Below the pieces are notes generated by a model. The model saw only the letters and a program-made list of their open reading frames with translations, ran no database searches and had not been told where the DNA came from. A stretch of 64,000 nucleotides of DNA, from IMG/VR virus record IMGVR_UViG_3300008963_000001, positions 62,001 to 126,000 of that record. The stretch is one strand, 5' to 3'. Numbering within the stretch: the first letter of the stretch is position 1; every line of letters begins with the position of its first letter. Below, in pieces: positions 5,256 through 50,998 of the stretch. Source of the DNA: a virus. A program made the translations under genes and the position numbers.

Positions 5256-5280
5256 TGCGCAGATTATGGGTTTTTAATTA

Positions 5281-7932: not shown

Positions 7933-7936
7933 GTCA

Positions 7937-9649: not shown

Positions 9650-9654
9650 GTAGT

Positions 9655-9897
9655 ATGCTTTTGAGAGAGTTTTTGGCCTTCGACCAAGATAAAAATGATT
9701 TTGCAAATGATCGCAGATATGACAATCGCCGCGACAACAGTGTACTGTCTCGAGGCGACACCCGCAAGGTAAAACTTACTCTAGGACAAATAAATCAGCT
9801 GAGACTACAAGCTGAAGCCCACAAAGCAGAGCACGAAGCCGAATCGGGCTTCATACAACAGATGTATGGAAACCCAAGTGGCGAAGAAGAGGCTTAG
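9655..9897 (+). CDS. Small conserved head-region protein (gp67 position)
   Basis: An 80-residue charged protein (MLLREFLAFDQDKND...) between portal and prohead protease. It occupies the place of T4 gp67, a prohead core protein, although no clear sequence match to gp67 is visible. It lacks a Shine-Dalgarno; a late promoter ends five bases before the ATG, so the message may be leaderless. Its end overlaps the next gene by 32 bases. A role in prohead core assembly is an inference from gene order. Confidence 0.6.
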   Translation: MLLREFLAFDQDKNDFANDRRYDNRRDNSVLSRGDTRKVKLTLGQINQLRLQAEAHKAEHEAESGFIQQMYGNPSGEEEA

Positions 9898-10585: not shown

Positions 10586-10625
10586 ATCAAAAAAGTACCA
10601 TTTAAAGCCAAAAATGTTAAAATAT

Positions 10626-10633
10626 TGTAAATA
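10626..10633 (+). promoter_or_regulatory. Late promoter-like TGTAAATA
   Basis: TGTAAATA precedes the acidic head protein gene. The predicted leader of about 29 bases contains GAGGAG before ATG 10668. It is one mismatch from TATAAATA. Confidence 0.5.
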
Positions 10634-10667
10634 GTACTACAGCCTTACAACTAGAGGAGATTAAATT

Positions 10668-36776: not shown

Positions 36777-36787
36777 AGAGAAAACAT

Positions 36788-37642
36788 ATGGCATTTGATT
36801 ATAGAACTTTAAAAAATATAACAGGAAGAGCATTTGTTTCTGAAACTTTAGAAGCAACAGATCTTGCAGATGATGCAATCACCTCTAGCAAAATCGAAGA
36901 CGGTGCTGTAAATGCAAATAAAATGCAAGAGGGATCAGTTAACTTAAGTGGAAACAAAGTAACCGGGTCTGTAAGTGCAAATGCTGGCGGAACCGGTTTA
37001 ACATCACTCGGATCCGCTTATCAAATTTTAAGTGTAGATTCAGGCGGCGGTAACCTTACATATGCGAATTCTAGCATTAGAAGTATGCGTGTATACACAG
37101 GTAATTCGACTTGGACGAAACCCAGCGGTGTTAGATATGTAAAAGCCTGTGTTGTAGGCGGTGGTGGCGGCGGCTCGGGCCACGGCGAAAGTGCAGGAGC
37201 CGGCGGGTACGCAGAAGAAATTATAGATGTAACTGGCATAAACAGCGTATCGATAACTGTAGGGGGAGGCGGTGGCAGCTCGTATTACTCCGGCGCAGGA
37301 GGAAATGGCGCAAGTTCGTCGTTTGGACCTTATGTATCAGCCAGCGGCGGGTATGGCGCAAACAGAAATAACCAGCACTCCGGCGGTGTTGGCGGTGTAG
37401 GAAGTGGCGGAAATTTAAATATTTACGGCGGAGGAGGCAATCCTCATCACACAGGATCAAGCACCGGTGGAGAGTCATTCTGGGGAGGTAACACAGCCGC
37501 AGGACATCCGCAAGGTGGACAGTTTTCTTATAATCACCGCAACCATGCCGCTCCGGGAAGTGGCGGCGCAGGCGGCCATTATAATGGAAACAGGGGTGCT
37601 ATAGGCCGAGGCGGAATGGTCGTTGTTTACGAATATTATTAA
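36788..37642 (+). CDS. Glycine-rich tail adhesin, copy 2
   Basis: A 284-residue paralogue of the genes on either side, with the same order: DLADDAITSSKIEDGAVNAN attachment segment, NLSGNKVTGSV, a strand pair ending in YVKACVVGGGGGG, then glycine runs and loops. Differences concentrate in the loops (IYGGGGNPHHTGSSTGG against the other copies) and in the final residues. The leader AAAGAGAAAACATATGGC is almost the same as before copy 3, so the duplication included the translation start. A host-recognition role is inferred from gene order and the glycine architecture. Confidence 0.7.
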   Translation: MAFDYRTLKNITGRAFVSETLEATDLADDAITSSKIEDGAVNANKMQEGSVNLSGNKVTGSVSANAGGTGLTSLGSAYQILSVDSGGGNLTYANSSIRSMRVYTGNSTWTKPSGVRYVKACVVGGGGGGSGHGESAGAGGYAEEIIDVTGINSVSITVGGGGGSSYYSGAGGNGASSSFGPYVSASGGYGANRNNQHSGGVGGVGSGGNLNIYGGGGNPHHTGSSTGGESFWGGNTAAGHPQGGQFSYNHRNHAAPGSGGAGGHYNGNRGAIGRGGMVVVYEYY

Positions 37643-37654
37643 AGAGAAAAACAT

Positions 37655-38509
37655 ATGGCATTTGATTATAGAACCTTAAAACAATTGTCTACTGAAGATA
37701 TAGTAGACGGATCGCTTGAAAAAACAGAATTAGCAAACGGTGTAGGTATTTCACGCACCGTAGCTAATAGTGCTGTTGGAGATACAAAACTAGCTAACAG
37801 TTCAGTGGATTTAGGCGGCAATAAAGTGACGGGTACATTGGGCGTAGGTTCAGGAGGAACAGGATTAACGTCCGCTGGAAGCAACTTAGAAGTATTGCGT
37901 GTTAACGGCGCCGGCAACGCTCTGGAATACTCTCGAATAGGTATCAATGCAATCAGAGCATATCAGGGCAATTCAACATGGAACAGACCTGCCGGTGTAA
38001 GATATGTTCATGTGCAAGTTGTAGGCGGTGGTGGTGGCGGCTCGGGCCACGGCGAAAGTGGCGGTGCAGGCGGGTACGCAGAAGAAATTATTAATGTAGA
38101 AAGCATAAGTTCGGTAAGCATAAGCATAGGGAGTCGAGGCGGTAGTTCGTATTACTCCGGTGCCGGCGGCAACGGAGGATCAACCTCCTTTGGACCGTAT
38201 TGCTCTGCAGGCGGCGGGTTCGGCGCAAACAGAAATAACCAGCACTCTGGTGGAGTTAGTGGTGTAGGAAGTGGCGGTAACTTAAATATTCATGGCGGCG
38301 GTGGTGGAAATCACACTGAAAGTTCGGGCCCCGGAGGATCATCATTCTGGGGAGGTAACACCGCAATGGGACATCCGCAAGGCGGACAGTTCACATATAA
38401 TCACCGCAATCATGCCGCTCCAGGAAGTGGCGGAACTGGCGGATATTATAATGGAAACAGGGGTGCTATCGGTCGCAACGGAATGGTTGTGGTAACTGAA
38501 TACAGATAA
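37655..38509 (+). CDS. Glycine-rich tail adhesin, copy 3
   Basis: A 284-residue third paralogue. It shares its start (MAFDYRTLK) with copy 2 and a central block (NRNNQHSGGVSGVGSGGNL) with copy 1. The loop after it (NHTESSGPGGSSFWGGNTAM) is its own. One glycine run is altered to SIGSRGGSSYYSG. Its mosaic likeness to the other two copies suggests recombination inside the array. The stop overlaps the next late promoter. Confidence 0.7.
   Translation: MAFDYRTLKQLSTEDIVDGSLEKTELANGVGISRTVANSAVGDTKLANSSVDLGGNKVTGTLGVGSGGTGLTSAGSNLEVLRVNGAGNALEYSRIGINAIRAYQGNSTWNRPAGVRYVHVQVVGGGGGGSGHGESGGAGGYAEEIINVESISSVSISIGSRGGSSYYSGAGGNGGSTSFGPYCSAGGGFGANRNNQHSGGVSGVGSGGNLNIHGGGGGNHTESSGPGGSSFWGGNTAMGHPQGGQFTYNHRNHAAPGSGGTGGYYNGNRGAIGRNGMVVVTEYR
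38222..38313 (+). repeat. 92-base tract identical to one in adhesin copy 1
   Basis: Identical to 36489-36580 at every base; divergence resumes on both sides. It lies inside the glycine-rich domain of copy 3. Confidence 0.8.
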
Positions 38510-38531: not shown

Positions 38532-39038
38532 ATGAAAAAAGTTTTAGTAAGCTTAGAAGGTTATGTAATGCAAGTCGAAGAACCCGGTAGTGACTTTGAC
38601 ATATACGAAGGTCCAGATGCAACATTTGCATGGGTAGATGCACCCGATGATGTGACATTACAATGGACACTAGAATATAGCCCATCTCAAGGTAAAATGA
38701 TTTGGGTCAATAGAGATGCACCTCCAGTCGATTTAGGAATGCAAAGAAGAGTTGCGTATGGCACCGTGGAGGATCAATTAGACATGCTTTATCATGATAT
38801 GAAAGACGGAAATCTCACAAGCGGATCTTGGTTTAATCATATTGATATAATCAAAAAATCAATTCCTAAGCCTCCTCCAAGCGAAGAAGAGTTATCTCCT
38901 GAGGAGCAAGAAGCTTTAGATGCAATACGCGAGCCGGATGTTAACTCCCCTATGAAATTTTCGACACCGGAAATGCCATCATGGGTAAGATGCCCGGGAT
39001 GGAAATATTACGAAGGTGATAAGGAGAAAGATGTATAA
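38532..39038 (+). CDS. Small protein after the adhesins, possible fibre assembly factor
   Basis: A 168-residue acidic protein. A beta-like N-terminal half is followed by RVAYGTVEDQLDMLYHDMKDG, a phrase resembling those at the ends of phage tail fibre or fibre-assembly proteins, then a Pro/Glu-rich linker (PKPPPSEEELSPEEQEAL). Its place directly behind the adhesin triplet suggests it helps fold or attach them. This is positional inference; no verified family match exists. The stop overlaps the next ATG by one base. Confidence 0.5.
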   Translation: MKKVLVSLEGYVMQVEEPGSDFDIYEGPDATFAWVDAPDDVTLQWTLEYSPSQGKMIWVNRDAPPVDLGMQRRVAYGTVEDQLDMLYHDMKDGNLTSGSWFNHIDIIKKSIPKPPPSEEELSPEEQEALDAIREPDVNSPMKFSTPEMPSWVRCPGWKYYEGDKEKDV

Positions 39039-39259
39039 TGGCTACACTTAGAGCAATTGGTCCTGTAACGGTCGAGAATGTATCTTTGGGGAAATTATTT
39101 GAAGCTTCTCTAGTTTCATTTGAAAAAAAGGTTAGTCTAGTAGTAGAAATAAATGGACATAATGTGTCTTTAGCTTACGATACCGATGGCAATGATTATG
39201 AAGCTGATCATAATGGACATAGGTATAGGGCTATGAATCCTAAATTTGTAGCAGAATAA
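39038..39259 (+). CDS. Small hypothetical protein
   Basis: A 73-residue protein with beta-like alternation (KVSLVVEINGHNVSLAYDTDG) and no recognised domain. Its ATG overlaps the previous stop (TAATG). GGAG occurs shortly before, inside the previous gene. It is the last gene before a strong terminator. Confidence 0.6.
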   Translation: MATLRAIGPVTVENVSLGKLFEASLVSFEKKVSLVVEINGHNVSLAYDTDGNDYEADHNGHRYRAMNPKFVAE

Positions 39260-39275
39260 ACTATCTTATTTGCAT

Positions 39276-39302
39276 AAAGCAGGTCCTGCCCTGCTTTTTT
39301 TA
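39276..39302 (+). terminator. Rho-independent terminator
   Basis: AAAGCAGG (39276-39283) pairs with CCTGCTTT (39290-39297), followed by a T run. It separates the adhesin unit from the halogenase/oxygenase island. Confidence 0.85.
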
Positions 39303-39352: not shown

Positions 39353-40957
39353 ATGAAAATAAAAAAGGTGTGTATTGTTGGTGGCGGATCGTCGGGCTGG
39401 ATGACTGCTGCTTCGTTAGCAAAACTTTGTCCTCATCTTGATGTCGTGTTGGTAGAGTCAAAATCAGTCGGCACTGTAGGTGTTGGTGAGTCTACCCTAG
39501 GACATATTAATAGATTTCTAAAAATGCTCGATATCACAGACGAGATGTGGATGGCCGATTGCAATGCTACATACAAGAACTCGATTAGATTTACAAGCTT
39601 TAGAGAAAACAACAATGAAGTTTTCGAGTATCCTTTTTGTCATGGGTTCGATTCTACCTTTGGAAAAGAAAACGGATTAGAAACGTGGAATGAACTTTCT
39701 GCCCTATACCCGGATATTTTTACTCCTGAGACGTTCGCAGAATTTCATGCTTTATCAAATACTACTCTTGCTACATATAATAAACAAACAAGAAATGAAG
39801 AAAAAAAATTAAAGTTTTTTGATTTCGGTCTAGATACTGCATATCATATGGATGCACAGTTATTCGGCGAATGGTTAAAAAATAATATTGCGTTACCCAA
39901 TGGAGTAAAACACATCACAGGTAATGTAATAAATTTTGCTGACGACGGAAAAGGAAAATTATTCAAGTTATTTGTAGATTCGGGCGACGAAATCGGCGCA
40001 GATTTATTTATTGATTGCACTGGATTCAGATCTTTATTATTAGAAAAAATAATGGGCGCACAATTTATTTCATTCGAAGATTATCTTGCAAATGATAGAG
40101 CATGGGCAGTTAGACTTCCGTATTCAAACAGAGAAGAGCAAATGCACAATGTAACTGATTGTCATGCGTTAGGCAACGGTTGGGTGTGGAATATACCTCT
40201 CTGGAACAGAATAGGGACCGGTTACGTATATTCCAGTCGTTTTATTGACGATGACGGCGCACTGAAAGAATTTAAAAATCATTTAAATGAGAAACATGAT
40301 GTAGATCTAGAAGAAGCAAAATTTTTCCCCGTCCAAATCAGGCACGGTAAGCGGACTCGTGCTTGGATAGGAAACGTAGTAGGTATAGGTCTAAGTTATG
40401 GGTTTGTTGAACCTTTAGAATCAACAGGTCTACTAACAACACACGAAAATATTATAAGATTAGTAGATATGCTAAACACAAGGGGCGGATATCTTACTAG
40501 ATCAGAAAGAGAAGCATTTAATAAAGCAGCTGATACGGATATAGAAGGATTCAAACAGTTTGTTTCTATGCACTATGCATTATCTAAAAGAAATGACACA
40601 GCATACTGGCGTTGGGCAACTCAAAAAAATGAATACGAGCCCTTGCAGTTTAACGATTTTCAATCTTCAAGATATGATTATAAAGATATCTTAGGACCTA
40701 TAATAGGAAACCTAGCAATGAACGATAGATATCATGGAAATAACTTTATTATTGCTGGTATGGGAATGCGATCAATTTCTACCGTTGGTCTTATTAAAGC
40801 AAGATATAACTACGACAGACTAAGTGAGCTTGAAAAGATAAAAAATGAATTTTTACACAAAAGAGACAGTGTTAGACAATATGTATCCGCCCTCCCAACA
40901 CATTATCAATATTTAAAAGAAAATATATACAATAATATTGACAACTATGATGTTTAA
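39353..40957 (+). CDS. Tryptophan-halogenase-like flavoenzyme 1
   Basis: A 534-residue FAD-dependent halogenase family protein. It has the GGGSSG nucleotide-binding turn at 10-15, VGVGES at 42-47, the likely catalytic lysine K75 in ATYKNSIRF, CTGF near 222, and the diagnostic WxWxIP motif as WVWNIP at 277-282. Family members use FADH2, O2 and halide to make hypohalous acid, which the lysine guides onto an aromatic ring; a flavin reductase must come from elsewhere. A marine cyanophage relative (VirX1) is known to iodinate varied substrates in vitro. It opens a chain of oxygenase genes; the in vivo substrate is unknown. Confidence 0.85.
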   Translation: MKIKKVCIVGGGSSGWMTAASLAKLCPHLDVVLVESKSVGTVGVGESTLGHINRFLKMLDITDEMWMADCNATYKNSIRFTSFRENNNEVFEYPFCHGFDSTFGKENGLETWNELSALYPDIFTPETFAEFHALSNTTLATYNKQTRNEEKKLKFFDFGLDTAYHMDAQLFGEWLKNNIALPNGVKHITGNVINFADDGKGKLFKLFVDSGDEIGADLFIDCTGFRSLLLEKIMGAQFISFEDYLANDRAWAVRLPYSNREEQMHNVTDCHALGNGWVWNIPLWNRIGTGYVYSSRFIDDDGALKEFKNHLNEKHDVDLEEAKFFPVQIRHGKRTRAWIGNVVGIGLSYGFVEPLESTGLLTTHENIIRLVDMLNTRGGYLTRSEREAFNKAADTDIEGFKQFVSMHYALSKRNDTAYWRWATQKNEYEPLQFNDFQSSRYDYKDILGPIIGNLAMNDRYHGNNFIIAGMGMRSISTVGLIKARYNYDRLSELEKIKNEFLHKRDSVRQYVSALPTHYQYLKENIYNNIDNYDV

Positions 40958-41720
40958 TTTTAAAAAGAAAAAACCAAAAATACGATTTTACAGTACCGAG
41001 CCCGGAGTGCCTGATGTGTTTCCTGTTGTTCCAACATCTCAAATTGAGAGATCGTGGTTAAATTTACCTAATTTTAATCATGATACAAACGGCGATATGT
41101 GGACAAAAAATTGTCCAGGTATAAAACTTATTATGAATGCAGGCTGGGTAATTCCTGCACCTGCAGATTTTATTATTGAAACAAACGGCGATGGTATTGA
41201 CTTTCAATGGATTGAACCCATAAAGTTTGCCCACGAAAAACCACCCGGAAACGAAATTTATATAGGCTTCCATGACAAAGATCAATCTGCCAGACTAGTA
41301 AACAAAAAAAATACTTTACAAACTGTTGTTAAGGTAAACACACCCTGGAGAGTTGAAGTTTCAGACGATTATCTATTATTGCAAATGCCAGTGTCTTATA
41401 ATAACGAATTTAGGTTTACCTCGGCACAAGGAATCCTAGATCCTAGATACGCACATGTTTTAAATATTCAGTTGTTTTGGCACGAAACAAACTCAAAAAC
41501 CATAATCAAAGCCGGAACTCCTTTAGCACAGTTTATTCCTATAAAAAGGAACGAATATATTTCAACAAATTTTGATTTCAGTGTAACAGAAGCAACAGAA
41601 AAGGATAAGCAAAAAGAACGAGCTTTTAACTATGCTCTCCGATGCTCCGAACTCAAATATGACACTTTAAAATCGAGATTAAAAAGAGTCAAATCAGTTC
41701 TAAGTAAATATGCTTTATAA
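40947..41720 (+). CDS. Conserved beta-rich protein of the halogenase island
   Basis: A 257-residue protein (KIRFYSTEPGVPDVFPVVPT near the start) with strand-rich blocks around KVNTPWRVEVSDDYLLLQMP and QLFWHETNSKTIIKAGTPLAQFIPI. Similar proteins occur beside oxygenase genes in marine T4-like phages; no enzymatic residues are evident. The overall pattern is cupin-like, but a metal site is not clear. The start was set at ATG 40947, inside the end of the halogenase gene; the TTG at 40938 was rejected. It may bind the product or substrate of its neighbours. Confidence 0.55.
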   Translation: MMFNFKKKKPKIRFYSTEPGVPDVFPVVPTSQIERSWLNLPNFNHDTNGDMWTKNCPGIKLIMNAGWVIPAPADFIIETNGDGIDFQWIEPIKFAHEKPPGNEIYIGFHDKDQSARLVNKKNTLQTVVKVNTPWRVEVSDDYLLLQMPVSYNNEFRFTSAQGILDPRYAHVLNIQLFWHETNSKTIIKAGTPLAQFIPIKRNEYISTNFDFSVTEATEKDKQKERAFNYALRCSELKYDTLKSRLKRVKSVLSKYAL

Positions 41721-41731
41721 GGAGATATAAT

Positions 41732-41983
41732 ATGACATATAAAATAAGTTTACAAGAAGTTACAGATAAAATTAAACATAAAAAAGAAGATACTGAAATT
41801 AAATTACAAACGCTAGAAAATGAATTAAACGACACTTCATTGAATCCTTACGGAATAACCACAATAGATTTTTCGGAAAGAAATGAAATGTTAGAAGATA
41901 TCCTTAAAATGGAAGGAGTCTTAATGGGACTTCAACTAGCAATGGAAACATATGACGAAGCTTTTTTAGAGAAAGATGAATAA
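41732..41983 (+). CDS. Small coiled-coil protein in the oxygenase chain
   Basis: An 83-residue charged helical protein (KIKHKKEDTEIKLQTLENEL). An excellent AAGGAG precedes the ATG. It overlaps the next oxygenase gene by eight bases. No family was recognised; it could be a small partner subunit. Confidence 0.6.
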   Translation: MTYKISLQEVTDKIKHKKEDTEIKLQTLENELNDTSLNPYGITTIDFSERNEMLEDILKMEGVLMGLQLAMETYDEAFLEKDE

Positions 41984-42563
41984 TGCAATATGCGTCGATC
42001 CGTTTCCTTCGTTAATTTGGAAATATAAGTTCAATTTTAGATTTCCAGAGTGGAAAGCAAAACTGTATTTGCATTCTGAAAACAATACTTCTCATTCATA
42101 TTTGGAAGAAGGCGATTCATACTCTAGTGTGTCGTCGCAAGACCAACCCATTCACTTATGGGACGAATTAAATGAGTTTAGAATTTGGCTACCAAACATA
42201 ATTAAACAGAATTGTAAATATCATTGCTTTAAGGATAAACAATATACAATTTTAAATTCATGGTTTAATATTCACAGGCCTAGTGGAAAAACTTTAGAAC
42301 ATTATCATAACAAGACAGATTTAGTAGTAACTTGTTATTTAGATAAACCACAAAACACCGGCAATATTGAATTTAGAGATCCCTTAGAATACCATAAATC
42401 AAACACATCAATAGAACCAGAAGAATTGTTATGGAAAGAAGTTGATTGCAAAACAAATGACATTTTAATATTTCCAGGCTGGGTTCGACATAGAACACAA
42501 CCGAATCGAGGGGATAAAGATAGAGTTGTAATGACAATAAACATAGGAAGTTATGAATTTTAA
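41976..42563 (+). CDS. 2OG-Fe(II) oxygenase-like protein A
   Basis: A 195-residue protein with the double-stranded beta-helix pattern of the phage 2OG-Fe(II) oxygenase group (2OG-FeII_Oxy_5-like): SWFNIHRPSGKTLEHYH with ligand candidates H109 and H111, YLDKPQNTGNIEFRDP, and IFPGWVRHRTQP with H172, then R183 to hold 2-oxoglutarate. Such enzymes hydroxylate or otherwise oxidise protein or small-molecule substrates. It overlaps both neighbours, so it belongs to the operon. Confidence 0.7.
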   Translation: MNNAICVDPFPSLIWKYKFNFRFPEWKAKLYLHSENNTSHSYLEEGDSYSSVSSQDQPIHLWDELNEFRIWLPNIIKQNCKYHCFKDKQYTILNSWFNIHRPSGKTLEHYHNKTDLVVTCYLDKPQNTGNIEFRDPLEYHKSNTSIEPEELLWKEVDCKTNDILIFPGWVRHRTQPNRGDKDRVVMTINIGSYEF

Positions 42564-43311
42564 TCGGTGTGTTCCGGATGCGAACAATTATAAAAACGAA
42601 GTAAAGATCAAAAGTTTACAGGATATCGAAATTGAATCCATAAACTTTGGAGAGATACACTGTTGGATTTTTAAAGATATATTTAAGAAGGACGGATTCG
42701 AAAAAATAAAAAATGTTATAGGATCATTTCCTATTCAAAAAAATAATAATATAGACACTAATTATGATCCTAATCCGTTCGATACCATACATATCCCTGC
42801 GTGGGCTTACAAAGAAGTTTGTTTCTTACTGCGAGATTTCTATTTAAAATTTCTCTGTGACAGTCCTTCACCTACTAATTTTGAGATTTTTGAATGGGGA
42901 AATGTTTATTTTAAGGATAAATCAAGACCAATAATAAGTAATCGTTTACCACATATAGATTTTTTGCATGGTATTGTAGGTAACTTATGGTTAGAACAAC
43001 AAGGAGGCGAAAGCGGAACTTCATTATACAGCTATAACGGGCAAATAATAAATGGTCAATATGATTTTATGGTAGACACTAATCACAGGAAGCACTTAGA
43101 TTATATGGAATTAGTGCAGAAAGGACGATCAGAGAATTGGTTTAATTTTGATAGCAATTTTTTGGCTGATTTCGGTTTTGTGTTTGAAGGATATTTACCT
43201 AGCATGGAAAATACAATGACCGTATACAGATCTAATCAATATCATACTCCATTTATAGACGACTTAACAAATTTTAGATGGTCGCATACATTTGCATTTT
43301 CTCACAGGTGA
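42553..43311 (+). CDS. 2OG-Fe(II) oxygenase-like protein B (divergent)
   Basis: A 252-residue protein. RLPHIDFLHG supplies a candidate HxD pair (H134/D136), followed by a strand and GGESGTSLYSYNG as in DUF6445-like relatives, and an NQYHTPFIDD motif near 232 for the distal histidine. The spacing is larger than in its neighbours and a clear 2-oxoglutarate arginine is not obvious, so activity is less certain. It overlaps the preceding gene by 11 bases. Confidence 0.55.
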   Translation: MNFNRCVPDANNYKNEVKIKSLQDIEIESINFGEIHCWIFKDIFKKDGFEKIKNVIGSFPIQKNNNIDTNYDPNPFDTIHIPAWAYKEVCFLLRDFYLKFLCDSPSPTNFEIFEWGNVYFKDKSRPIISNRLPHIDFLHGIVGNLWLEQQGGESGTSLYSYNGQIINGQYDFMVDTNHRKHLDYMELVQKGRSENWFNFDSNFLADFGFVFEGYLPSMENTMTVYRSNQYHTPFIDDLTNFRWSHTFAFSHR

Positions 43312-43326
43312 AACTAAACTATAAAA

Positions 43327-43935
43327 ATGAACAAATTCGAATACAATCATGATTTTAGAATTACCGAACTATTTCCGGTTCCGCTGTTTCAAACGGTAAT
43401 TGATATTCCTGATATTAATAAAGACGACTGGGTCTGGAAAGATAATTTAAACAATCAAATTTCTGAGAATCAAAAAATATTAGAGCACGAAAGTTTATCT
43501 ATACTCAAGAAAGACATTGAATTAAATTTAAATACATTTTGGCGAAACGTTCTAAATGCAGATTGCGAAGCTGACATAGAAATAACACATTCTTGGCTGA
43601 ATATCACGCATACACATCAAAGTCATCATTTACATAGGCATCCTAATAGCTATATTAGTGGTGTTTTATTTTGGCAACATCACGAATCTGCAATTGTTTT
43701 TTCAAATGATCGGTATAGTCAGATACAGTATGAAGTTTCGTGCACAAATATGTTAAACAGTAATACATGGAGAGTGTGTCCGGAACCTGGACTACTTTTA
43801 TTGTTTCCTAGCTATCAAAGTCATGCGGTTGAATATGTATCACAGGAACAATCCGAAAGATTAAGTTTGAGCTTTGATACATGGGTTCGTGGCAGCGTGA
43901 ACAGTATTCCTAATCAACAATTGATAATAGGATGA
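43327..43935 (+). CDS. 2OG-Fe(II) oxygenase-like protein C
   Basis: A 202-residue protein of the same group as A. It has THSWLNITHTHQSHHLHRHPNS with ligand candidates H103 and H105, a strand ending in SGVLFW, and LLLFPSYQSHAVEY with H166, then R178 in SERLSLSF. The opening TELFPVPLFQTVI is typical of the family. A Shine-Dalgarno is not evident before ATG 43327. Confidence 0.7.
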   Translation: MNKFEYNHDFRITELFPVPLFQTVIDIPDINKDDWVWKDNLNNQISENQKILEHESLSILKKDIELNLNTFWRNVLNADCEADIEITHSWLNITHTHQSHHLHRHPNSYISGVLFWQHHESAIVFSNDRYSQIQYEVSCTNMLNSNTWRVCPEPGLLLLFPSYQSHAVEYVSQEQSERLSLSFDTWVRGSVNSIPNQQLIIG

Positions 43936-43954
43936 CTATCTTTATGGAGAAGTT

Positions 43955-44551
43955 ATGAATTTAGATTATTATTTTCCAACTCCTGTTTGGTGGACAGATA
44001 CTACATTCGATAATACAGATCTGTTAAAATTATATAATGATCTCAGGACCAAAGACCCAGTAGGAGCAGAATTAAGTAATTTTGGAGGCTGGCAAAGTAA
44101 ATCTTTCGCCCACAATGAATTCAACTGTACGTTACAAATATCGGATCTAATTTTAAACCAAGGAAGTAGAATTCTATCAGATTATGGATTAGAACCGACC
44201 TGTCATGTATTAGAAATGGATAATATGTGGTTTAACTGTAACAAAGGAAAAGATATAAATCAAGTCCATATTCATGGAGGATCTGATTTCTCAGGAGTTT
44301 ACTACCTTTCGGCTCCCGAAGGATCAGGAGATATAGTCTTTTATAAAAATTATCACGAAGAATTTTTTACGAACAGTTTAGGAAATAATTTTGAGAGAAT
44401 AACACCTGTTAGTGCAACTGTTGCTAAGTATCCGTCTAAAAACAAAAGATTAATCTTATTTCCTTCGAATTTACAACACGGTGTTCTTCCTAGCTCAACA
44501 GAAAGAGAGCGAATTTCTATCTCTTTTAATATTAAGGTAAAGCATGTTTGA
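43955..44551 (+). CDS. 2OG-Fe(II) oxygenase-like protein D
   Basis: A 198-residue protein with a very clear pattern: NQVHIHGGSDFSGVYYL (H105, H107), GSGDIVFY, LILFPSNLQHGVLPS (H175) and RERISISFN (R186). The N-terminus YYFPTPVWWTD is family-typical. TGGAG precedes the ATG. It overlaps the next gene by eight bases. Confidence 0.75.
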   Translation: MNLDYYFPTPVWWTDTTFDNTDLLKLYNDLRTKDPVGAELSNFGGWQSKSFAHNEFNCTLQISDLILNQGSRILSDYGLEPTCHVLEMDNMWFNCNKGKDINQVHIHGGSDFSGVYYLSAPEGSGDIVFYKNYHEEFFTNSLGNNFERITPVSATVAKYPSKNKRLILFPSNLQHGVLPSSTERERISISFNIKVKHV

Positions 44552-45257
44552 AAATTTATGTGAAAAAATATTAAAAAAATATAATTTACAGTATAACGAT
44601 CGACCAGTACACTTTGAAAATGTTTTTAACGACCCGTCAATACTAGCTAACTGGACGACTATCGAAAATTGTATTAACTTTCCTGCAATGTATGAATTTG
44701 AATTAATTGATTTTCATAATCAAAAGATTGAAATTCCTAGATATAGGAAGATGTGGAATTCAATAAAAACTGTGCAAGATAAAGAATTTGTTTTTAATAA
44801 ATTTATGCAGGGGTATGGCTTAATCATAACAAATTACGATAATAACAACGAGTATATAAATAATTTGCTTAGATGTTTTGAAAACTTTTTTGATGTTTAT
44901 ACCGATGCGCATTTATATTGTGGTTTGAAAAATGCTAATTCTTTTTCAATTCACGAAGATTATCCATCAAATTTTATTGTTCAAATCGACGGAACAACAC
45001 ATTGGAAAGTATTTAAAAATAGAATATCAAGCGTCTATAGGACAGGGTTAATGAACAATCTACTAAAAGAAGATCAATTAGAAACAGTGTTAGATGTAAC
45101 TTTGAATCCTGGTGATATGTTATACATTCCTGCTAGAGCCTATCACTGTGCACAACCATGCAACGAGCGTATAAGTATTAGCATTCCTTGTTGGAGCAGA
45201 ACATTAGCTGATGACCCTGCATTGCAAAATGATAGAAACATATATAGGATAAATTAA
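44544..45257 (+). CDS. JmjC/cupin-type hydroxylase-like protein
   Basis: A 237-residue protein different from its neighbours. ANSFSIHEDYPSNFIVQIDG supplies an H-E-D metal cluster (H137 to D139), THWKVF follows, and LNPGDMLYIPARAYHCAQP gives the distal H201. This is the pattern of Cupin_4/JmjC ribosomal-oxygenase-like enzymes, which hydroxylate protein side chains. Its presence hints that proteins are among the island's substrates. It overlaps its predecessor by eight bases and the next gene starts directly after its stop. Confidence 0.65.
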   Translation: MFENLCEKILKKYNLQYNDRPVHFENVFNDPSILANWTTIENCINFPAMYEFELIDFHNQKIEIPRYRKMWNSIKTVQDKEFVFNKFMQGYGLIITNYDNNNEYINNLLRCFENFFDVYTDAHLYCGLKNANSFSIHEDYPSNFIVQIDGTTHWKVFKNRISSVYRTGLMNNLLKEDQLETVLDVTLNPGDMLYIPARAYHCAQPCNERISISIPCWSRTLADDPALQNDRNIYRIN

Positions 45258-45824
45258 ATGTTTGAAACTCAATTGGTATACGGAATATTAGATACAAACG
45301 AATTTAAAGAAATAAATGATTTTGTAAACGGCACAGAAATAACCTGGACACATATAAAAGATACAACATATGAAAATGGCAGGACACCCAGTATTGATAC
45401 ACCTGCCTTTGCTCATATACTGTTGGGTCACGACGGGTATCGAAGCCCCTTTCTCGATAAATTTACGCCTCTGCACCAAGCATTAATGAATAGATTAGAT
45501 ATAACTCCTAAGAATGTATTCAGAATGAGATTAGGTTTTTTATTAAATACACGCTACACTTTTCCAAGTCAACCGTATGTTTATAATTCTCCGCATAAGG
45601 ATGCAGATTTTGATCATCTAACAGCAGTCTTTCATTTTATGCATTCTGACGGAAATACAGTAATTTTCAATCAAACAGAAGAAAGTGATGCATATTCAAT
45701 TAAGGAGAGCATTGAACCTGATCAAAACATGGCGGTAGTTTTTGATGGAAATTATTATCATGCAAGCACATGCCCAAAAGTATTTACTAAAAGAATTGCA
45801 TTAACAATTAATTTTACTATCTAA
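45258..45824 (+). CDS. 2OG-Fe(II) oxygenase-like protein E
   Basis: A 188-residue protein with SPHKDADFDHLTAVFHF (H113, D115), NTVIFNQTEE, and AVVFDGNYYHASTCP (H168) followed by KRIALTINF (R179). This is a complete HxD...H...R set of the 2OG-Fe(II) superfamily. TAA and ATG abut at the gene start, and the next gene begins immediately after its stop. Confidence 0.7.
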   Translation: MFETQLVYGILDTNEFKEINDFVNGTEITWTHIKDTTYENGRTPSIDTPAFAHILLGHDGYRSPFLDKFTPLHQALMNRLDITPKNVFRMRLGFLLNTRYTFPSQPYVYNSPHKDADFDHLTAVFHFMHSDGNTVIFNQTEESDAYSIKESIEPDQNMAVVFDGNYYHASTCPKVFTKRIALTINFTI

Positions 45825-46478
45825 ATGGAAAATTTTAAAAATAAAAATATAAAACCGCTTGTTCCTACTATTATCATAGATGACTTTTTTGAGTCGCCGT
45901 CGTTGTGGTTAGAATATGCAAAACAATTAGAGTATTTTAAAGGCGATAGAGGCACCTGGCCCGGTTATAGATCCGATTTATTTTCTAATATGAATACTGA
46001 GCTGCAGAATATAATCGATAATAAGCTCTTACAACATCTTTTTGAATTCGATAAATTTACAAAGAATGATATCAGCATACAATGTGTATCAGAAGAATGG
46101 GGCCAGGGATGGATTCATGACGATGATCCAAAATTTTATGGTGCCGCTGGAGTGATATTTCTTAATAAAAAATATCCTAAAAATACAGGAACAACAATCT
46201 ACAATCAACAGATAGATCCAAGTTATGAAAAGTTTGGAAATATATTTTTTGATGATGTTACAGATGTAGAAAGAAAACATAATGATCTCTATCTAAAACA
46301 CCAACAAGAACAAAAACAAATGTTTAAAGAAACTATCAAAGTCGAAGGAAGATATAATAGGTGTCTAATATTTGATCCGAGACAATGGCATGCGGCAGAT
46401 AATTATTTCGGCACAAGCAAAGATGATAGTAGATATACAATTGTTTTTTTTGTAAACAACAAGGATTCATTAAACTAA
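45825..46478 (+). CDS. 2OG-Fe(II) oxygenase-like protein F1
   Basis: A 217-residue protein: GQGWIHDDDPKFYGAAGVIFL (H98, D100), TGTTIYN, LIFDPRQWHAADNYFG (H189) and DDSRYTIVFF (R203). It shares this whole pattern with the next gene and is its tandem paralogue. The stop overlaps the next ATG by one base. Confidence 0.7.
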   Translation: MENFKNKNIKPLVPTIIIDDFFESPSLWLEYAKQLEYFKGDRGTWPGYRSDLFSNMNTELQNIIDNKLLQHLFEFDKFTKNDISIQCVSEEWGQGWIHDDDPKFYGAAGVIFLNKKYPKNTGTTIYNQQIDPSYEKFGNIFFDDVTDVERKHNDLYLKHQQEQKQMFKETIKVEGRYNRCLIFDPRQWHAADNYFGTSKDDSRYTIVFFVNNKDSLN

Positions 46479-47146
46479 TGCTATCACCAGAGGAGAGTTC
46501 GAGACTCATAAAAGAAAATGATCTAAAAAACAGGATAAAATATCCGAGATTTCCTAGTCGTATTATAGAAGATTTTTTACCTTGTCCGTATGTATGGAGA
46601 AACTTAGCCTTACAACAAGATTATTACGATACTGATCTGCCTATTCCAGGCCAGCGCAGTAAATTTCTCGAACAAATTGATGCAGATATATTTACAGACT
46701 TTGCTCGTATATTTTTAAAACATTTTCCTATTTTTTCTGGTTTTCAAAACCTTTCTGTTTGTTTTCAATTGGTCGATGAAACATATGGCCAGGGGTGGGT
46801 GCATGACGATGATCCTACAGTTACCTTCTCAGGGGTAATATATCTTAACCCACATGCTGCAGCCAATACCGGCACAACTTTATATGATGATCAGGAAGAC
46901 ACATATGCTAATGACTTTAAAGATATGATTTGGAAGGACACCCTTCAATCTAGTGCCGATGAAAGAAAACAATGTAGTAAATATAGATTACAGCAACGAG
47001 AAACATTTACTCCTTCACTTACGGTCGAAAACGTTTTTAACAGAGCATTTATTTACGATCCGAGAACTTGGCACAGTGCAGATAATTTTTTCGGCTCAGA
47101 TAAAGATGATTCAAGATTAACAATGGTATTTTACGGTAAAATTTAA
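46478..47146 (+). CDS. 2OG-Fe(II) oxygenase-like protein F2
   Basis: A 222-residue tandem paralogue of F1: GQGWVHDDDPTVTFSGVIYL (H109, D111), TGTTLYDDQE, FIYDPRTWHSADNFFG (H199) and DDSRLTMVFY (R213). The N-terminal 30 residues differ. Both F genes keep all ligands, so both may be active with different partners. TAATG couples it to the neighbours on each side. Confidence 0.7.
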   Translation: MLSPEESSRLIKENDLKNRIKYPRFPSRIIEDFLPCPYVWRNLALQQDYYDTDLPIPGQRSKFLEQIDADIFTDFARIFLKHFPIFSGFQNLSVCFQLVDETYGQGWVHDDDPTVTFSGVIYLNPHAAANTGTTLYDDQEDTYANDFKDMIWKDTLQSSADERKQCSKYRLQQRETFTPSLTVENVFNRAFIYDPRTWHSADNFFGSDKDDSRLTMVFYGKI

Positions 47147-47784
47147 TGAGTTCTGACGATATAATAGTAATAGATAATATAATAACAAAAAGTTATCAAA
47201 ATGCAATCTTAGATAGGGTTACTGCTCACACATTTCCGTGGTATTTCAATCCTAATCTAATCACGCCAAATTTTGCTAAAGGCAAAGAATATATGGATAG
47301 CAATCCAGTAGGATTAAATCATTTTTTATTCGAAGATGGTAAGGTCGATTCGCCATTTTTTGATTTTCTTTATCCGTTGATATTAAGTATTCAGGACATG
47401 AATATGTTTCCTAAGGCCTCGACAGAACGCATGAGGATGAACCTTACACAGCGAAATCCTAATTCGACAAAAGAACATCATCTACCACACATTGATAGTT
47501 TTTATGAACACTGGAATGTTATTTATTACGTAAATGATAATGACGGGCCTACCTATATTTTTAACGATACTAATAAAAATTATGAATATAAAGATCAAGA
47601 TTTTATGCTCACAAATAACTTTTCGGTAAAACAAAAAATTTATCCGAAGAAGGGAAGAATTGTTGCCTTTCCAGGATTTTATTATCATGCTTCTAGTTTT
47701 TGCAAAGAATTTCCTTACCGGATTGTTTTAAATATCAATTTTTCAGGATTACAAGATGTACTGCAAAGATCACGAGATACATAA
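47146..47784 (+). CDS. 2OG-Fe(II) oxygenase-like protein G
   Basis: A 212-residue protein: HHLPHIDSFYEHWNVIYYV (H115, D117), GPTYIFND, RIVAFPGFYYHASSF (H181) and YRIVLNINFS (R192). It resembles protein E in layout. It overlaps the next frame by 29 bases. Confidence 0.7.
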   Translation: MSSDDIIVIDNIITKSYQNAILDRVTAHTFPWYFNPNLITPNFAKGKEYMDSNPVGLNHFLFEDGKVDSPFFDFLYPLILSIQDMNMFPKASTERMRMNLTQRNPNSTKEHHLPHIDSFYEHWNVIYYVNDNDGPTYIFNDTNKNYEYKDQDFMLTNNFSVKQKIYPKKGRIVAFPGFYYHASSFCKEFPYRIVLNINFSGLQDVLQRSRDT

Positions 47785-48286
47785 TTCGCAATTAATTCTC
47801 AAAAATCATACAAAAATGGTAAATGATTTATATTTTGTCTATGATTTTTTCAAAGACATATTTCCTTATGGAGATAGCACAGAGGCATATCCTCTTTATA
47901 ATGTGTTTTGTGCAACCTCTCCCGATCCTGTATGGTATCAACTACTACAAGAACTTAAATTAATTATCAGAAATTTTGCAGGCCATAATGATCCTTTGTG
48001 GATGCAAGCTTGGCTAAATTATCATACACCGGAAACTGTGCTAGGTTGGCACGGGCACGATTGGCCGATACATGGATATATCAACATTAATCCTTTCGAT
48101 ACGGAAACACAGTTCGAAGATTATACTGTAAAAAATAAAATAGGAAATATCTATATAGGTCCAGGTCATCGATTACATAAAGTCAATGTAAAAAGCAATT
48201 TTATAGAGCCTAGATTAACAATCGGGTTTGATGTTCACGACAAGCCAGAACCACCGTTTAGACATTTTTCATTGATGCCGCTATGA
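47756..48286 (+). CDS. 2OG-Fe(II) oxygenase-like protein H
   Basis: A 176-residue protein with AWLNYHTPETVLGWHGHDWP (H99, H101, D102), IGNIYIGPGHRLHKVNV (H138 or H141) and EPRLTIGFDV (R153). The start is uncertain. ATG 47756 lies 29 bases inside the previous gene; a second ATG at 47816 would trim 20 residues and begins MVNDLYFVYDFF, which looks like a natural start. Neither has a strong Shine-Dalgarno. Confidence 0.65.
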   Translation: MYCKDHEIHNSQLILKNHTKMVNDLYFVYDFFKDIFPYGDSTEAYPLYNVFCATSPDPVWYQLLQELKLIIRNFAGHNDPLWMQAWLNYHTPETVLGWHGHDWPIHGYININPFDTETQFEDYTVKNKIGNIYIGPGHRLHKVNVKSNFIEPRLTIGFDVHDKPEPPFRHFSLMPL

Positions 48287-48852
48287 ACTTAAATAAACCA
48301 ATTTTTTTAAACAGAATTGTCGACGAAAAATTATTAGATTTTGTCACTAGAGAATTAAAAATAGCAGCCAATGCTGCCAGAATATTAGAACCGCACTCTG
48401 GATACGAAGAAGGATTTGCGGATAGTTTTAATTTTTATTGTCCGCCATGTTTAGAAGTTTTGTCGGAAATAATTCAGCCAGTAATAGAAAACAAACTACA
48501 ACTAAAACTATATCCTAGTTACACTTATGCACGGTTATATCGACATGGATCCCGTTTAAATAAGCATTATGACAGACGAAGCAGCGAATTTACAGTAAGT
48601 TTATCACTGGAATATGATGATTCAAATTGGCCTTTGTGTATTTTAGATGATGAAAATAACATAAACAAATTTGTGCTTAACAAGGGAGAAGCCGTAATTT
48701 ATAGCGGCAGGCAATTTGCGCACTGGCGTGACGGTCCTTATAAAGGGAAAGAACAAGCACAAGCATTTTTTCAATATGTAGACATAAACGGCGATAGTGC
48801 TGATCTCAAATATGATGGCAAAATAGCACCGGGCCTTCCCTTTACCTTTTAA
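48283..48852 (+). CDS. 2OG-Fe(II) oxygenase-like protein I (prolyl hydroxylase style)
   Basis: A 189-residue protein: YARLYRHGSRLNKHYDRRSS (H95, D97), FTVSLSLEYDDSNWP, then GEAVIYSGRQFAHWRDGP (H147) and a basic KGKEQAQAFFQY end. This is closer to the prolyl-4-hydroxylase branch than to A-D. It is the last plus-strand gene of the island; four bases separate its stop from the end of the convergent second halogenase, with no terminator hairpin seen. Confidence 0.7.
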   Translation: MNLNKPIFLNRIVDEKLLDFVTRELKIAANAARILEPHSGYEEGFADSFNFYCPPCLEVLSEIIQPVIENKLQLKLYPSYTYARLYRHGSRLNKHYDRRSSEFTVSLSLEYDDSNWPLCILDDENNINKFVLNKGEAVIYSGRQFAHWRDGPYKGKEQAQAFFQYVDINGDSADLKYDGKIAPGLPFTF

Positions 48853-48855
48853 ACA

Positions 48856-50367
48856 TTAATCAGTAACTTTTAAACTAGAAGCATAATTTACCAGATCGTT
48901 TACTGATGGTGTTGCATCTAAAAAATCAATTCCTTGCATTGCTAAATTAATTGCTTCTCTATGTTTTACAGTTTGGGGTAGTATACCCTGTCTTATGTTA
49001 TAAGCTTTTTTATGTAAATGCGGCATTTGCCCCCAAAGGTTAGCTATTTCTTTCCTATCTAATAATCGCAAGCCCCACATAACTTGCGTGTAATTAAGAC
49101 TTTTAAACATGATAAAATGATCGTTGAATGGTTGATGAGAAGGAAGATATTTCTTAAAATCATCTAAATATTCTCTGTTAAAATCTGTCAAAATTAAGTC
49201 AGAATTAATCCAGCGCCAAAACTCACTGTCGCGTCTTTCTGTTATATAATGTATTTGAACAAAATCAATTATATTTTCAGAAACCTGTTTAAATCTCTTA
49301 TTATATATTTTTGCACTTGTTTTATCATTTTTATGCCAATGTGGTAAACTGGTAATTAAACCAAACATCTGTTGTATTGTAGAACCAATGCTGGTTGCTT
49401 CTAGCGGTTCAACAAACATACTGGCAAGACCTACACAAACACAATTTTTTGTCCAGTTTTCGTCTAAATATCCTGCAGAAAATTTTATTTTTTTAGCTAT
49501 TTCTATTTTATCCGAATGTTGCGATTGCGCCTCGCTTATAGCTTCGTCTTCATTTATGAAATCGTCACAGTAAACATAGCCGTTACCGAATCTGTTTTGT
49601 GTAGGTATTCTCCACATCCAGCCTGAGCTTAAAGCTCTTGCTTCAGTGTGCGAAGGTATGTCTTCCTTATATCCTGTAGGAAATGCGATGGCACTGTTCA
49701 TAGGAAGATAGTCTTTGCAGTCTATCCATTTTACACCAAGCTTTGATGCAATCACTCTTCTAAATCCGCTACAATCAATGAAGAAATCTGCTGTATAAAT
49801 TTGTTTTCCGTGAAGTTTAGATACAAAGCCGCTTTCATCTAATTCTACATCGTCTATAGTATCATTTATGAAAATTACGCCTTTATTCTCACACTTTTTA
49901 TGAAAATAGTCATTAAGTTTTTTTGTATCAAAATGAAACTGATTTACGCTTTTAGAAAAAGGCCCGGCGTGCCTACTCTCTAAAGTTTCTTTCCATACCG
50001 ATGCAAGCGCATCTTCTCCGTTGGCAATTTGATCTACCATGCTAAGGTACAAGCCCGACCTCGGGTCTTGCGAAAGAGTAAACTCGGCAAGGGCATGCCA
50101 ATATTCAGTGTTATCGCCATGCCAGTTATTAAATCTTATACCGGTTTTAAAAGTTGCATCTGTTTCTCTTAGTAATTCAGGAATATCGATTTCTAAATAT
50201 TCCATAAGGTGTGCCCAGTGTTCTGTTGACCCCTCACCAACTCCTATAATTCCAATATCCTTTGATTCTATCAGGGTTACATCTAATTTTGGAAATGCGT
50301 GTTTACAACACAGGGCACTTATAAGACCTGCTGTTCCGCCTCCCAACACAATTAATTTATTAATCAT
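48856..50367 (-). CDS. Tryptophan-halogenase-like flavoenzyme 2
   Basis: A 503-residue FAD halogenase family protein with GGGTAG at 9-14, GVGEGST at 42-48, the likely catalytic K74 in ATFKTGIRF, DCSGFRR near 199, and WMWRIP (WxWxIP) at 250-255. It is only distantly like the first halogenase, so the pair is not a recent duplication. The start ATG 50367 is supported by AGGA eight bases upstream; a TTG at 50382 was rejected. It overlaps the preceding minus-strand oxygenase by eight bases. Its orientation closes the island from the far side. Confidence 0.85.
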   Translation of the reverse strand: MINKLIVLGGGTAGLISALCCKHAFPKLDVTLIESKDIGIIGVGEGSTEHWAHLMEYLEIDIPELLRETDATFKTGIRFNNWHGDNTEYWHALAEFTLSQDPRSGLYLSMVDQIANGEDALASVWKETLESRHAGPFSKSVNQFHFDTKKLNDYFHKKCENKGVIFINDTIDDVELDESGFVSKLHGKQIYTADFFIDCSGFRRVIASKLGVKWIDCKDYLPMNSAIAFPTGYKEDIPSHTEARALSSGWMWRIPTQNRFGNGYVYCDDFINEDEAISEAQSQHSDKIEIAKKIKFSAGYLDENWTKNCVCVGLASMFVEPLEATSIGSTIQQMFGLITSLPHWHKNDKTSAKIYNKRFKQVSENIIDFVQIHYITERRDSEFWRWINSDLILTDFNREYLDDFKKYLPSHQPFNDHFIMFKSLNYTQVMWGLRLLDRKEIANLWGQMPHLHKKAYNIRQGILPQTVKHREAINLAMQGIDFLDATPSVNDLVNYASSLKVTD

Positions 50368-50998
50368 TGGTTTGTTCCTCAAAAAAGTCTTTCTTAATTG
50401 TTGATTCTAGTTTAATAACTGCAATAGAATCTCTTGCTAAATTATAATTAATTTTACCTGTGGGTAACACATTAAAGCTTATTGTGTATCTATCAGTGTC
50501 ATCAAAATTAGGCATAGTAGAGTGATACATCCAACTAGGAAATAAAATTAATTTTCCAGGTTCTGGGTTTATGCGATAAAAAGGAGAGAATTCATGTTGA
50601 AGGACTTCGATTTGAGCATGTGTTCTTTGAAATACTGGGTCCTCAAACACAGTAGGCGCGCCCTCTGTTAAATAATAAATTCCACTCCATAAACTCATAG
50701 AATGTCTATGTGGAGCATGATACATATCAGAGTTACGATAATATTTATTAGCCCAACTGCTTGAAATTTCTAGCATGTCGCAATCATACTTATGATCATC
50801 TTTCAGCATGTTTAAACAGGAATTTATCCAATTAAATAAGCCACAAAATTGATCTTTTACGTGCAGATTATCAATAGAGCTTAGTGCATTATGTTCACCG
50901 AATGTTTCGTCATCCAGCAGTGAAATCAACTTGTCGTTATCGAGGGTATCATTGTTAAAAGAGTAGATTGAAACGGGGAATAAGTTTATTTTATCCAT
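50360..50998 (-). CDS. 2OG-Fe(II) oxygenase-like protein J
   Basis: A 212-residue protein with HAPHRHSMSLWSGIYYL (H97, H99), APTVFEDP, KLILFPSWMYHSTMP (H159) and TDRYTISFN (R170), a full family pattern. It is the first gene of the two-gene minus-strand operon with halogenase 2, a direct link between one oxygenase and one halogenase. A late promoter-like ACTAAATA lies about 20 bases upstream of the start; no strong Shine-Dalgarno is seen. Confidence 0.75.
   Translation of the reverse strand: MDKINLFPVSIYSFNNDTLDNDKLISLLDDETFGEHNALSSIDNLHVKDQFCGLFNWINSCLNMLKDDHKYDCDMLEISSSWANKYYRNSDMYHAPHRHSMSLWSGIYYLTEGAPTVFEDPVFQRTHAQIEVLQHEFSPFYRINPEPGKLILFPSWMYHSTMPNFDDTDRYTISFNVLPTGKINYNLARDSIAVIKLESTIKKDFFEEQTND

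What the first reader, a model, noticed from the sequence alone, without database searches (positions are those of the whole stretch)
39353..50998. Island of two halogenases and twelve non-haem iron oxygenases
An 11.6 kb block holds two FAD halogenases with intact WxWxIP and lysine, ten HxD/HxH...H...R oxygenase-like proteins on the plus strand and one on the minus strand (one of them, B, without an obvious arginine), and a JmjC/cupin-like protein. Most plus-strand genes are chained by overlaps or abutting starts. Marine T4-like phages often carry a few such genes, but a contiguous set of this size looks like a modification pathway. Its place right after the adhesins makes virion protein decoration (hydroxylation plus halogenation of Tyr/Trp-rich or Gly-rich fibres) a testable idea; host surface or small-molecule chemistry is the alternative.
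Basis: partly seen in the sequence, partly recalled or inferred. Interest (0 to 1): 0.78.

Follow-up and report, generated by a model that had tools for sequence, protein, structure and literature searches.

The report
Tail-fibre halogenase and oxygenase cassette
A marine virus of bacteria carries, directly after the genes for its glycine-rich tail-fibre tips, a conserved set of halogen-adding and oxygen-adding enzymes that are probably used to chemically modify those tips before infection, which would give the well-known 'orphan' viral halogenase VirX1 its missing natural substrate.

Summary
The block holds two FAD halogenases and twelve HxD/HxH...H...R oxygenases, with catalytic residues conserved across relatives. 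Oxygenase B does have its arginine (R242, 54/55). Halogenase A is a VirX1-type enzyme (PDB 6qgm, E 7e-187). The cassette is old and ordered: Gly-Gly-Gly-s-X-u-m-a-b-d-J-e-f-g-h-q-r recurs in about 90 IMG/VR contigs and in cyanophages Syn9/Syn10, S-CREM1, P-TIM40 and S-RIM44.

A reverse search with only the glycine-rich fibre as query found a halogenase 31-2,279 bp downstream in 73 of 73 testable contigs; the oxygenase set varies, the halogenase does not. Of 20 complete genomes, 8 have this fibre and all 8 have a halogenase. The fibres are Pam3-fibre-like tips with near-invariant Tyr167, His197 and His220; same-domain proteins inspected in four phages lacking this fibre family lack the signature. 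A T4-type late-promoter heptamer precedes the halogenase in 23/45 relatives with an intergenic gap (background 0.9%). Likeliest reading: a late operon that halogenates and hydroxylates tail-fibre tips during assembly.

The genes are individually known; the fibre-halogenase pairing was not found in the open-access papers searched. No chemistry has been shown. Solo halogenases away from fibres exist.

The parts
35928..38509 (+). Three tandem glycine-rich tail-fibre tip proteins (35928-36776, 36788-37642, 37655-38509), the proposed substrates
   Evidence: Pfam Gly_rich_2 in 22/22 aligned members; AF2 model best match Cyanophage Pam3 fiber 7ypx E 5.2e-8; Y167/H197/H220 in 93/95, 94/95, 95/95 diverse members
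38532..39038 (+). 's' (phrog_1787): small protein between fibres and halogenase, probably a fibre assembly chaperone (inferred from position and a Tfa-like C-terminal motif)
   Evidence: phrog_1787 4.7e-27; found in 96/107 sequences analysed; no Pfam or PDB match
39038..39259 (+). small ORF of about 73 codons, no known relatives in PHROGs
   Evidence: sequence; no PHROG match
39276..39297 (+). intrinsic-terminator-like hairpin with T tail closing the fibre operon; followed by a degenerate late-promoter-like GTTAAATA before the halogenase
   Evidence: many relatives have a T-rich stretch plus exact ATAAATA here
39353..40957 (+). Halogenase A, VirX1-type flavin-dependent halogenase
   Evidence: PF04820 2.7e-104; VirX1 6qgm E 7e-187; 53% identical to Syn10 VirX1; catalytic residues conserved
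40938..41720 (+). 'u' phrog_7084, dUTPase-like jelly-roll fold, weak DUF6065 similarity; function unknown
   Evidence: phrog_7084 7.6e-54; AF2 pLDDT 92; Foldseek dUTPase E 1.7e-4; DUF6065 in 4/40 members
41732..41983 (+). 'm', small conserved protein, probably helical
   Evidence: conserved NPYG.T.IDF..R motif in 50 relatives
41976..42563 (+). oxygenase a (2OG-FeII_Oxy_5)
   Evidence: PF13759 3.6e-13; H109/H111/H172 61/61, R183 59 Arg + 2 Lys
42553..43311 (+). oxygenase b
   Evidence: phrog_1644 5.5e-19; H134/D136/H231 55/55, R242 54/55
43327..43935 (+). oxygenase c
   Evidence: PF13759 2e-15; H103/H105/H166/R178 6/6
43955..44551 (+). oxygenase d
   Evidence: PF13759 2.8e-20; H105/H107/H175/R186 77/77
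44544..45257 (+). JmjC_2/cupin_8 protein hydroxylase-like enzyme (J)
   Evidence: PF08007 5.6e-17 over cut-off; H137/D139/H201 51/51
45258..45824 (+). oxygenase e
   Evidence: phrog_274 4.1e-25; H113/D115/H168/R179 52/52
45825..46478 (+). oxygenase f (DUF6445)
   Evidence: PF20043 1e-15; H98/D100/H189/R203 in 48-49/55; 6 relatives have lost all four
46478..47146 (+). oxygenase g (DUF6445)
   Evidence: PF20043 1.7e-11; H109/D111/H199/R213 36-37/39
47146..47784 (+). oxygenase h (2OG-FeII_Oxy_3 type)
   Evidence: phrog_274 2.3e-40; H115/D117/R192 62/62
47756..48286 (+). oxygenase q (phrog_2696)
   Evidence: phrog_2696 9.4e-46; H99/H101/H141/R153 44/44
48283..48852 (+). oxygenase r (phrog_2954, named ferrochelatase in PHROGs)
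   Evidence: phrog_2954 3.2e-43; H95/D97/H147/R149 48/48
48856..50382 (-). Halogenase B, second flavin-dependent halogenase
   Evidence: PF04820 3.1e-100; W255/W257/E325/E328 52/52; tandem copies in relatives
50360..50998 (-). oxygenase i
   Evidence: PF13759 2.9e-18; H97/H99/H159/R170 12/12

Best explanation
The block is a late-expressed virion-protein modification cassette. The glycine-rich fibre tips are made late in infection and folded with a small assembly protein (s). While they are being made or assembled, the VirX1-type halogenase puts halogen on an aromatic residue of the tip, most plausibly a conserved tyrosine such as Tyr167 (site inferred). A variable set of 2OG/Fe oxygenases, with a JmjC_2-type protein hydroxylase among them, hydroxylates other tip residues (His, Asn and Pro occur there; sites inferred). 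The finished tip would thus carry a chemically altered, sticky or receptor-specific surface. Shown here: the genes, their intact active sites, the near-obligate pairing of fibre and halogenase, the operon structure, a late-type promoter in many relatives, and the predicted fibre fold. Inferred: the substrate, the modified residues, and the benefit (adsorption).
For: Search by fibre alone (patterns taken from the fibre family) gives a halogenase 31-2,279 bp downstream in 73/73 testable contigs, and the 5 misses end within 25 bp of the fibre; their halogenases form 30 groups below 70% identity. Search by JmjC, by halogenase and by u (in another collection) returns the same order. In 20 complete genomes the fibre profile is in 8, all with a halogenase; counted against the linked VirX1-type cassette Fisher p = 1e-4, against any halogenase p = 0.04. 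Fibre and cassette sit together in different genome places: followed by neck genes in S-RIM44 and Sf-FP1, by small genes in Syn10 and S-CREM1, by a DNA ligase in L155, by a baseplate connector here. Fibre tips keep Y167/H197/H220, whereas Gly_rich_2 proteins read from S-ShM2, S-RSM4, HTVC008M and Sf-CH11 lack the signature. Exact ATAAATA lies within 60 nt before the halogenase in 23/45 loci with a gap (background 0.9%), none in loci without a gap; downstream genes overlap and mostly lack such promoters. Fold: Pam3 tail fibre. The neighbours are tail fibre, baseplate or sheath genes. Catalytic residues kept. VirX1 has a large, accessible active site and forms a trimer (PMC8407142).
Against: No mass spectrometry or enzyme test. 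Halogenases of this superfamily also occur without fibres nearby: S-B64 between gp46 and a peptidase, S-MbCM6 beside psbA, and IMG/VR loci L085 and L090-L093 show no such fibre within the DNA held. S-B64's Gly fibre lacks the H197 motif. Linkage may partly be hitchhiking in a recombination hot spot. The scan patterns came from the fibre family itself, so fibres with other tips were not sampled. In the window the late promoter before halogenase A is degenerate and a terminator separates it from the fibres.
Confidence: 0.6

Rival explanations
1. The enzymes make a halogenated, hydroxylated small molecule (antibiotic, toxin or signal) during infection.
For: Tryptophan halogenases are classic natural-product enzymes; this was proposed for S-CREM1 (PMC9964418) and for a different halogenase cluster of S-SSM6a (PMC7824862).
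Against: No scaffold-building gene (NRPS, PKS, aminotransferase, carrier, transporter) among the genes identified in the block; the oxygenase set varies while the fibre stays constant; late promoter; flanked by structural genes.
Confidence: 0.12
2. The enzymes modify the host: receptor proteins or surface polymers, for superinfection exclusion or release.
For: Host-surface enzymes are common in cyanophages; 2OG enzymes are annotated as host-metabolism genes (PMC9602691).
Against: Late-type promoter; no secretion or transmembrane gene identified in the cassette; pairing is with one fibre family.
Confidence: 0.1
3. Hitchhiking: fibres and cassette sit in the same exchange hot spot and are inherited together without working together.
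For: The region is a variable island; 2OG genes (phrog_81) occur in all 20 phages tested; solo halogenases exist.
Against: The fibre-halogenase pair persists in many lineages and in different genome places, while other neighbours change; the fibre tip signature goes with the halogenase.
Confidence: 0.1
4. The oxygenases change 2-oxoglutarate levels or nitrogen signalling in the host.
For: Proposed for cyanophage 2OG enzymes in general (PMC3037559).
Against: Would not need twelve divergent enzymes, nor halogenases, nor a place next to the fibre genes.
Confidence: 0.04

Closest known systems
VirX1, flavin-dependent halogenase of cyanophage Syn10 (PDB 6qgm; reviewed in PMC8407142)
   Same: Halogenase A is its homologue over the full length (53% identity to the Syn10 gene, E 7e-187 to 6qgm), same cassette position in Syn10
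   Different: VirX1 is known from in vitro iodination and bromination of unnatural substrates; the review read here lists no gene cluster for it. Here a natural substrate is proposed from gene context
Cyanophage Pam3 tail fibre gp24 with chaperone gp25 (PMC9608196)
   Same: Glycine-rich fibre tip fold; small protein encoded after the fibre
   Different: Pam3's distal tip is described as hypervariable; here tips keep Tyr/His/Glu residues and are followed by a halogenase. The s protein gave no sequence match to gp25
Mimivirus collagen-modifying enzymes (e.g. L230 lysyl hydroxylase-glucosyltransferase; from memory)
   Same: Virus-encoded oxygenase for virus-encoded fibrous proteins
   Different: Different enzyme, eukaryotic virus, no halogenase
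Halogenase/oxygenase/carbamoyltransferase cluster of S-SSM6a described as secondary-metabolite or capsule system (PMC7824862)
   Same: Phage halogenase with several 2OG and cupin enzymes; in the related S-SSM7 tandem Gly/Cys-rich proteins lie upstream
   Different: Carries sugar and carbamoyl genes; halogenase only about 30% identical

Membership tests
Flavin-dependent halogenase (PF04820), VirX1 type | GxGxxG FAD motif, WxWxIP, catalytic Lys and Glu | tested here: met
Flavin-dependent halogenase (PF04820), VirX1 type | halogenating activity with halide preference I > Br > Cl | not testable with these tools
   needs purified enzyme
2OG-Fe(II) oxygenases | HxD/HxH...H metal triad plus Arg for 2OG | tested here: met
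   eleven of the twelve window copies incl. one minus-strand; r has its conserved Arg two residues after the distal His, and J has its own JmjC pattern
2OG-Fe(II) oxygenases | double-stranded beta-helix fold | tested here: inconclusive
   Pfam oxygenase/JmjC models over cut-off for a, c, d, J, i; e and h below cut-off; f, g hit DUF6445; b, q, r only PHROG families
JmjC_2 protein hydroxylases (YcfD/MINA/NO66 type) | JmjC_2 domain with HxD...H | tested here: met
   PF08007 61.9 bits over cut-off 22; H137/D139/H201 51/51
JmjC_2 protein hydroxylases (YcfD/MINA/NO66 type) | hydroxylates a His or Arg of a protein | not testable with these tools
   needs enzyme assay
Glycine-rich tail-fibre tip (Pam3 gp24 / S16 gp38 kind) | Gly_rich_2 domain and its fold | tested here: met
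Glycine-rich tail-fibre tip (Pam3 gp24 / S16 gp38 kind) | present in the virion | not testable with these tools
   no proteome of this virus
Secondary-metabolite gene cluster | scaffold-building enzyme, carrier or precursor peptide | tested here: not met
   none recognised by Pfam/PHROGs in the block; m is a conserved probably helical protein, not precursor-like

The most novel reading that the evidence does not exclude
Marine T4-like phages halogenate (perhaps brominate or iodinate) and hydroxylate their own tail-fibre tips; this is the natural role of VirX1-type halogenases and would be, to my knowledge, the first case of enzymatic halogenation of a viral structural protein by a viral enzyme.
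Probability: 0.5. Interest if true: 0.9.

Novelty: new variant of a known kind. Interest (0 to 1): 0.74.

Why it matters
VirX1 is a celebrated biocatalyst whose natural substrate appears unknown; this analysis names a concrete candidate that can be tested with isolates already in culture (Syn9/Syn10, S-CREM1, P-TIM40, S-RIM44). If right, it explains part of the puzzling wealth of 2OG oxygenases in cyanophages, usually filed as host-metabolism genes, as virion-finishing enzymes, and adds halogen chemistry to how phages build their host-recognition surfaces in a bromide- and iodide-containing sea.

Tried and rejected
1) 'Fibre His content rises with the oxygenase set': 7.4% His in the full-set class against 4.0% in halogenase-only loci, but after clustering only 2 independent members of the full-set class remain and p = 0.33; rejected. 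2) Naming s as a proven fibre chaperone: no Pfam or PDB match; kept as inference. 3) Fibre tblastn against GenBank phages gave one record only, probably because the low-complexity filter hides it; profile search of whole records was used instead. 4) u as an active dUTPase: only a partial fold match (TM 0.36 on query); not claimed. 5) u in bacteria as a non-viral system: the two long hits among bacterial/archaeal genomes (L234, L235) are the same phage cassette; none in plasmids. 7) Literature for an earlier statement that phage halogenases act on fibres: none found in open-access full texts; subscription papers were not searchable, and the primary VirX1 paper was not held, so priority is not certain.
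Full report
WHAT IS THERE. The window is bases 62,001-126,000 of a 128,677-base IMG/VR virus record of T4-like cyanophage type. From 21 kb to 35 kb lie long tail-fibre genes, from 35,928 to 38,509 three tandem glycine-rich proteins, then s, then the block, and from 51,066 a baseplate/fibre connector, a tail-sheath stabiliser, a virion structural protein and tail sheath. All window copies have their metal ligands. Oxygenase B has H134, D136, H231 (55/55) and R242 (54/55), so it is not arginine-less. In oxygenase f six relatives have lost all four residues together, a likely inactive paralogue beside an active one. Halogenase A keeps K75, W277, P282, E353 and E356 in 92/92 and W279 in 91/92.

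HOW CONSERVED IT IS. Halogenase A matches VirX1 of cyanophage Syn10 (53% identity; PDB 6qgm E 7e-187). At least 597 matched stretches in IMG/VR encode relatives. In 107 sequences analysed (106 loci plus the window itself) the order Gly-Gly-Gly-s-X(X)-u-m-a-b-d-J-e-f-g-h-q-r, often followed by one to three minus-strand halogenase ORFs, is strikingly constant. GenBank phages Syn10, S-CREM1, P-TIM40, S-RIM44, S-WAM1, P-RSM6 and Sf-FP1 carry versions of it, always directly after fibre genes; the proteins s, u and J are found in largely the same cyanophages.

THE TEST THAT MATTERS. Starting from the halogenase biases towards cassettes, so I started from the fibre alone (profile A2, led by a divergent member). 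Of 78 loci, 73 have a halogenase 31-2,279 bp after the last fibre; the other five end within 25 bp of the fibre. The 68 long enough to compare fall into 30 groups below 70% identity (14 below 60%). The oxygenase set varies from many genes to one or none recognised, the halogenase does not. In 20 complete genomes the fibre profile is present in 8, every one with a halogenase; in seven the two are adjacent, and in S-B64 they are far apart (61.8 and 148.5 kb) with a weaker fibre match. The other 12 lack the fibre; six of them still have some halogenase, so the association is specific for the linked VirX1-type cassette (p = 1e-4) and weaker for any halogenase (p = 0.04). These 20 genomes are related and not a random sample, so the p-values are only a guide. 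A third entry point, u searched in bacterial and archaeal genome assemblies, again gave fibre-s-halogenase-u in two contigs that look like misbinned viral DNA.

THE FIBRE. All aligned members carry Pfam Gly_rich_2. An AlphaFold model, confident in the tip region, is closest to the cyanophage Pam3 tail fibre (7ypx E 5.2e-8), a trimeric fibre whose glycine-rich tip is described as hypervariable and receptor-binding (PMC9608196). In the halogenase-linked family the tip instead keeps Glu134, Tyr167, Phe179, His197 and His220 in 92-95 of 95 diverse members. Gly_rich_2 proteins read from S-ShM2, S-RSM4, HTVC008M and Sf-CH11 lack this signature. S-RSM4 is instructive: it has a Gly_rich_2 fibre of another type, no halogenase, and about ten oxygenase-like genes right beside the fibre. 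So oxygenases accompany fibres more widely, while the halogenase goes with this tip signature.

TIMING. In deduplicated relatives with a gap of 30 nt or more before the halogenase, 23/45 have the T4-type late heptamer ATAAATA within 60 nt upstream (median -33; background 0.9% of random 60-nt windows); where there is no gap there is none, consistent with co-transcription with the fibres. Downstream genes overlap and mostly lack it, so the cassette reads as one late operon. In the window itself there is a terminator-like hairpin and only a degenerate late-like GTTAAATA. Identification of ATAAATA as the late promoter rests on established knowledge of T4-like phages.

MECHANISM, SHOWN AND INFERRED. 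Shown: genes, intact catalytic residues, fibre-halogenase pairing, operon and promoter pattern, predicted fibre fold. Inferred: that the fibre tip is the substrate; that Tyr167 or another tip aromatic is halogenated; that JmjC and the other oxygenases hydroxylate tip residues; that the benefit is adsorption or tip stability. VirX1 has a large, open active site and is trimeric (PMC8407142), which would suit a protein substrate, but this is only compatible, not proof. u has a dUTPase-like fold and no assigned role.

AGAINST. Related halogenases sit without fibres in S-B64, S-MbCM6 and some IMG/VR loci. Linkage can be hitchhiking. No virion chemistry is known. Published readings are different: antibiotic protection (PMC9964418), 2OG/nitrogen signalling (PMC3037559), secondary metabolite or capsule for another cluster (PMC7824862). 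The fibre reading was not found in the open-access papers searched.

VERDICT. Real, conserved and functionally coherent; individual genes are known, the coupling to a particular tail-fibre tip is the new part, and it makes the natural substrate of VirX1 directly testable.

Noticed in passing
L238 (S-RSM4) 2735-10656: Gly_rich_2 fibre followed by about ten oxygenase-like genes but no halogenase found in the genome: oxygenases accompany fibres even without a halogenase.
   Followed up: partly
L113 (S-SSM7) 1-10482: Tandem Cys/Gly-rich Gly_rich_2 proteins lie about 7 kb upstream of a divergent halogenase; the cluster of S-SSM6a was described as a secondary-metabolite or capsule system (PMC7824862). 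It may also be fibre chemistry.
   Followed up: no
L232 (S-SRM01) 5980-10588: A divergent halogenase gene sits between a fibre-like gene and a gene annotated as gp37-gp38 adhesin tip in a reservoir cyanophage.
   Followed up: partly
L035, L041, L056, L067, L071, L082 (relatives of window 45825-46478): Six oxF relatives have lost all four metal/2OG residues together: a likely pseudo-enzyme paralogue in a duplicated DUF6445 pair.
   Followed up: partly
L234, L235: Full fibre-halogenase-oxygenase cassettes in contigs filed under a Euryarchaeota MAG and Nonlabens xiamenensis: probably misbinned viral contigs.
   Followed up: no
window 42553-48852 (PHROG families 274, 1644, 2954): These families are named 'DNA endonuclease V', 'minor coat protein' and 'ferrochelatase', but members here have intact HxD...H oxygenase motifs; the names look wrong.
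   Followed up: partly
L115 (Halorubrum tailed phage 7) 8734-9624: A distant homologue of u in haloarchaeal tailed viruses, next to thymidylate synthase, with no halogenase seen nearby.
   Followed up: no
window 39038-39259: Small ORF of about 73 codons between s and the terminator, no PHROG match.
   Followed up: no
L117 (S-PM2, record 121316-122701): The S-PM2 halogenase match has an in-frame TAA: possibly a decayed halogenase gene in a phage without this fibre.
   Followed up: no
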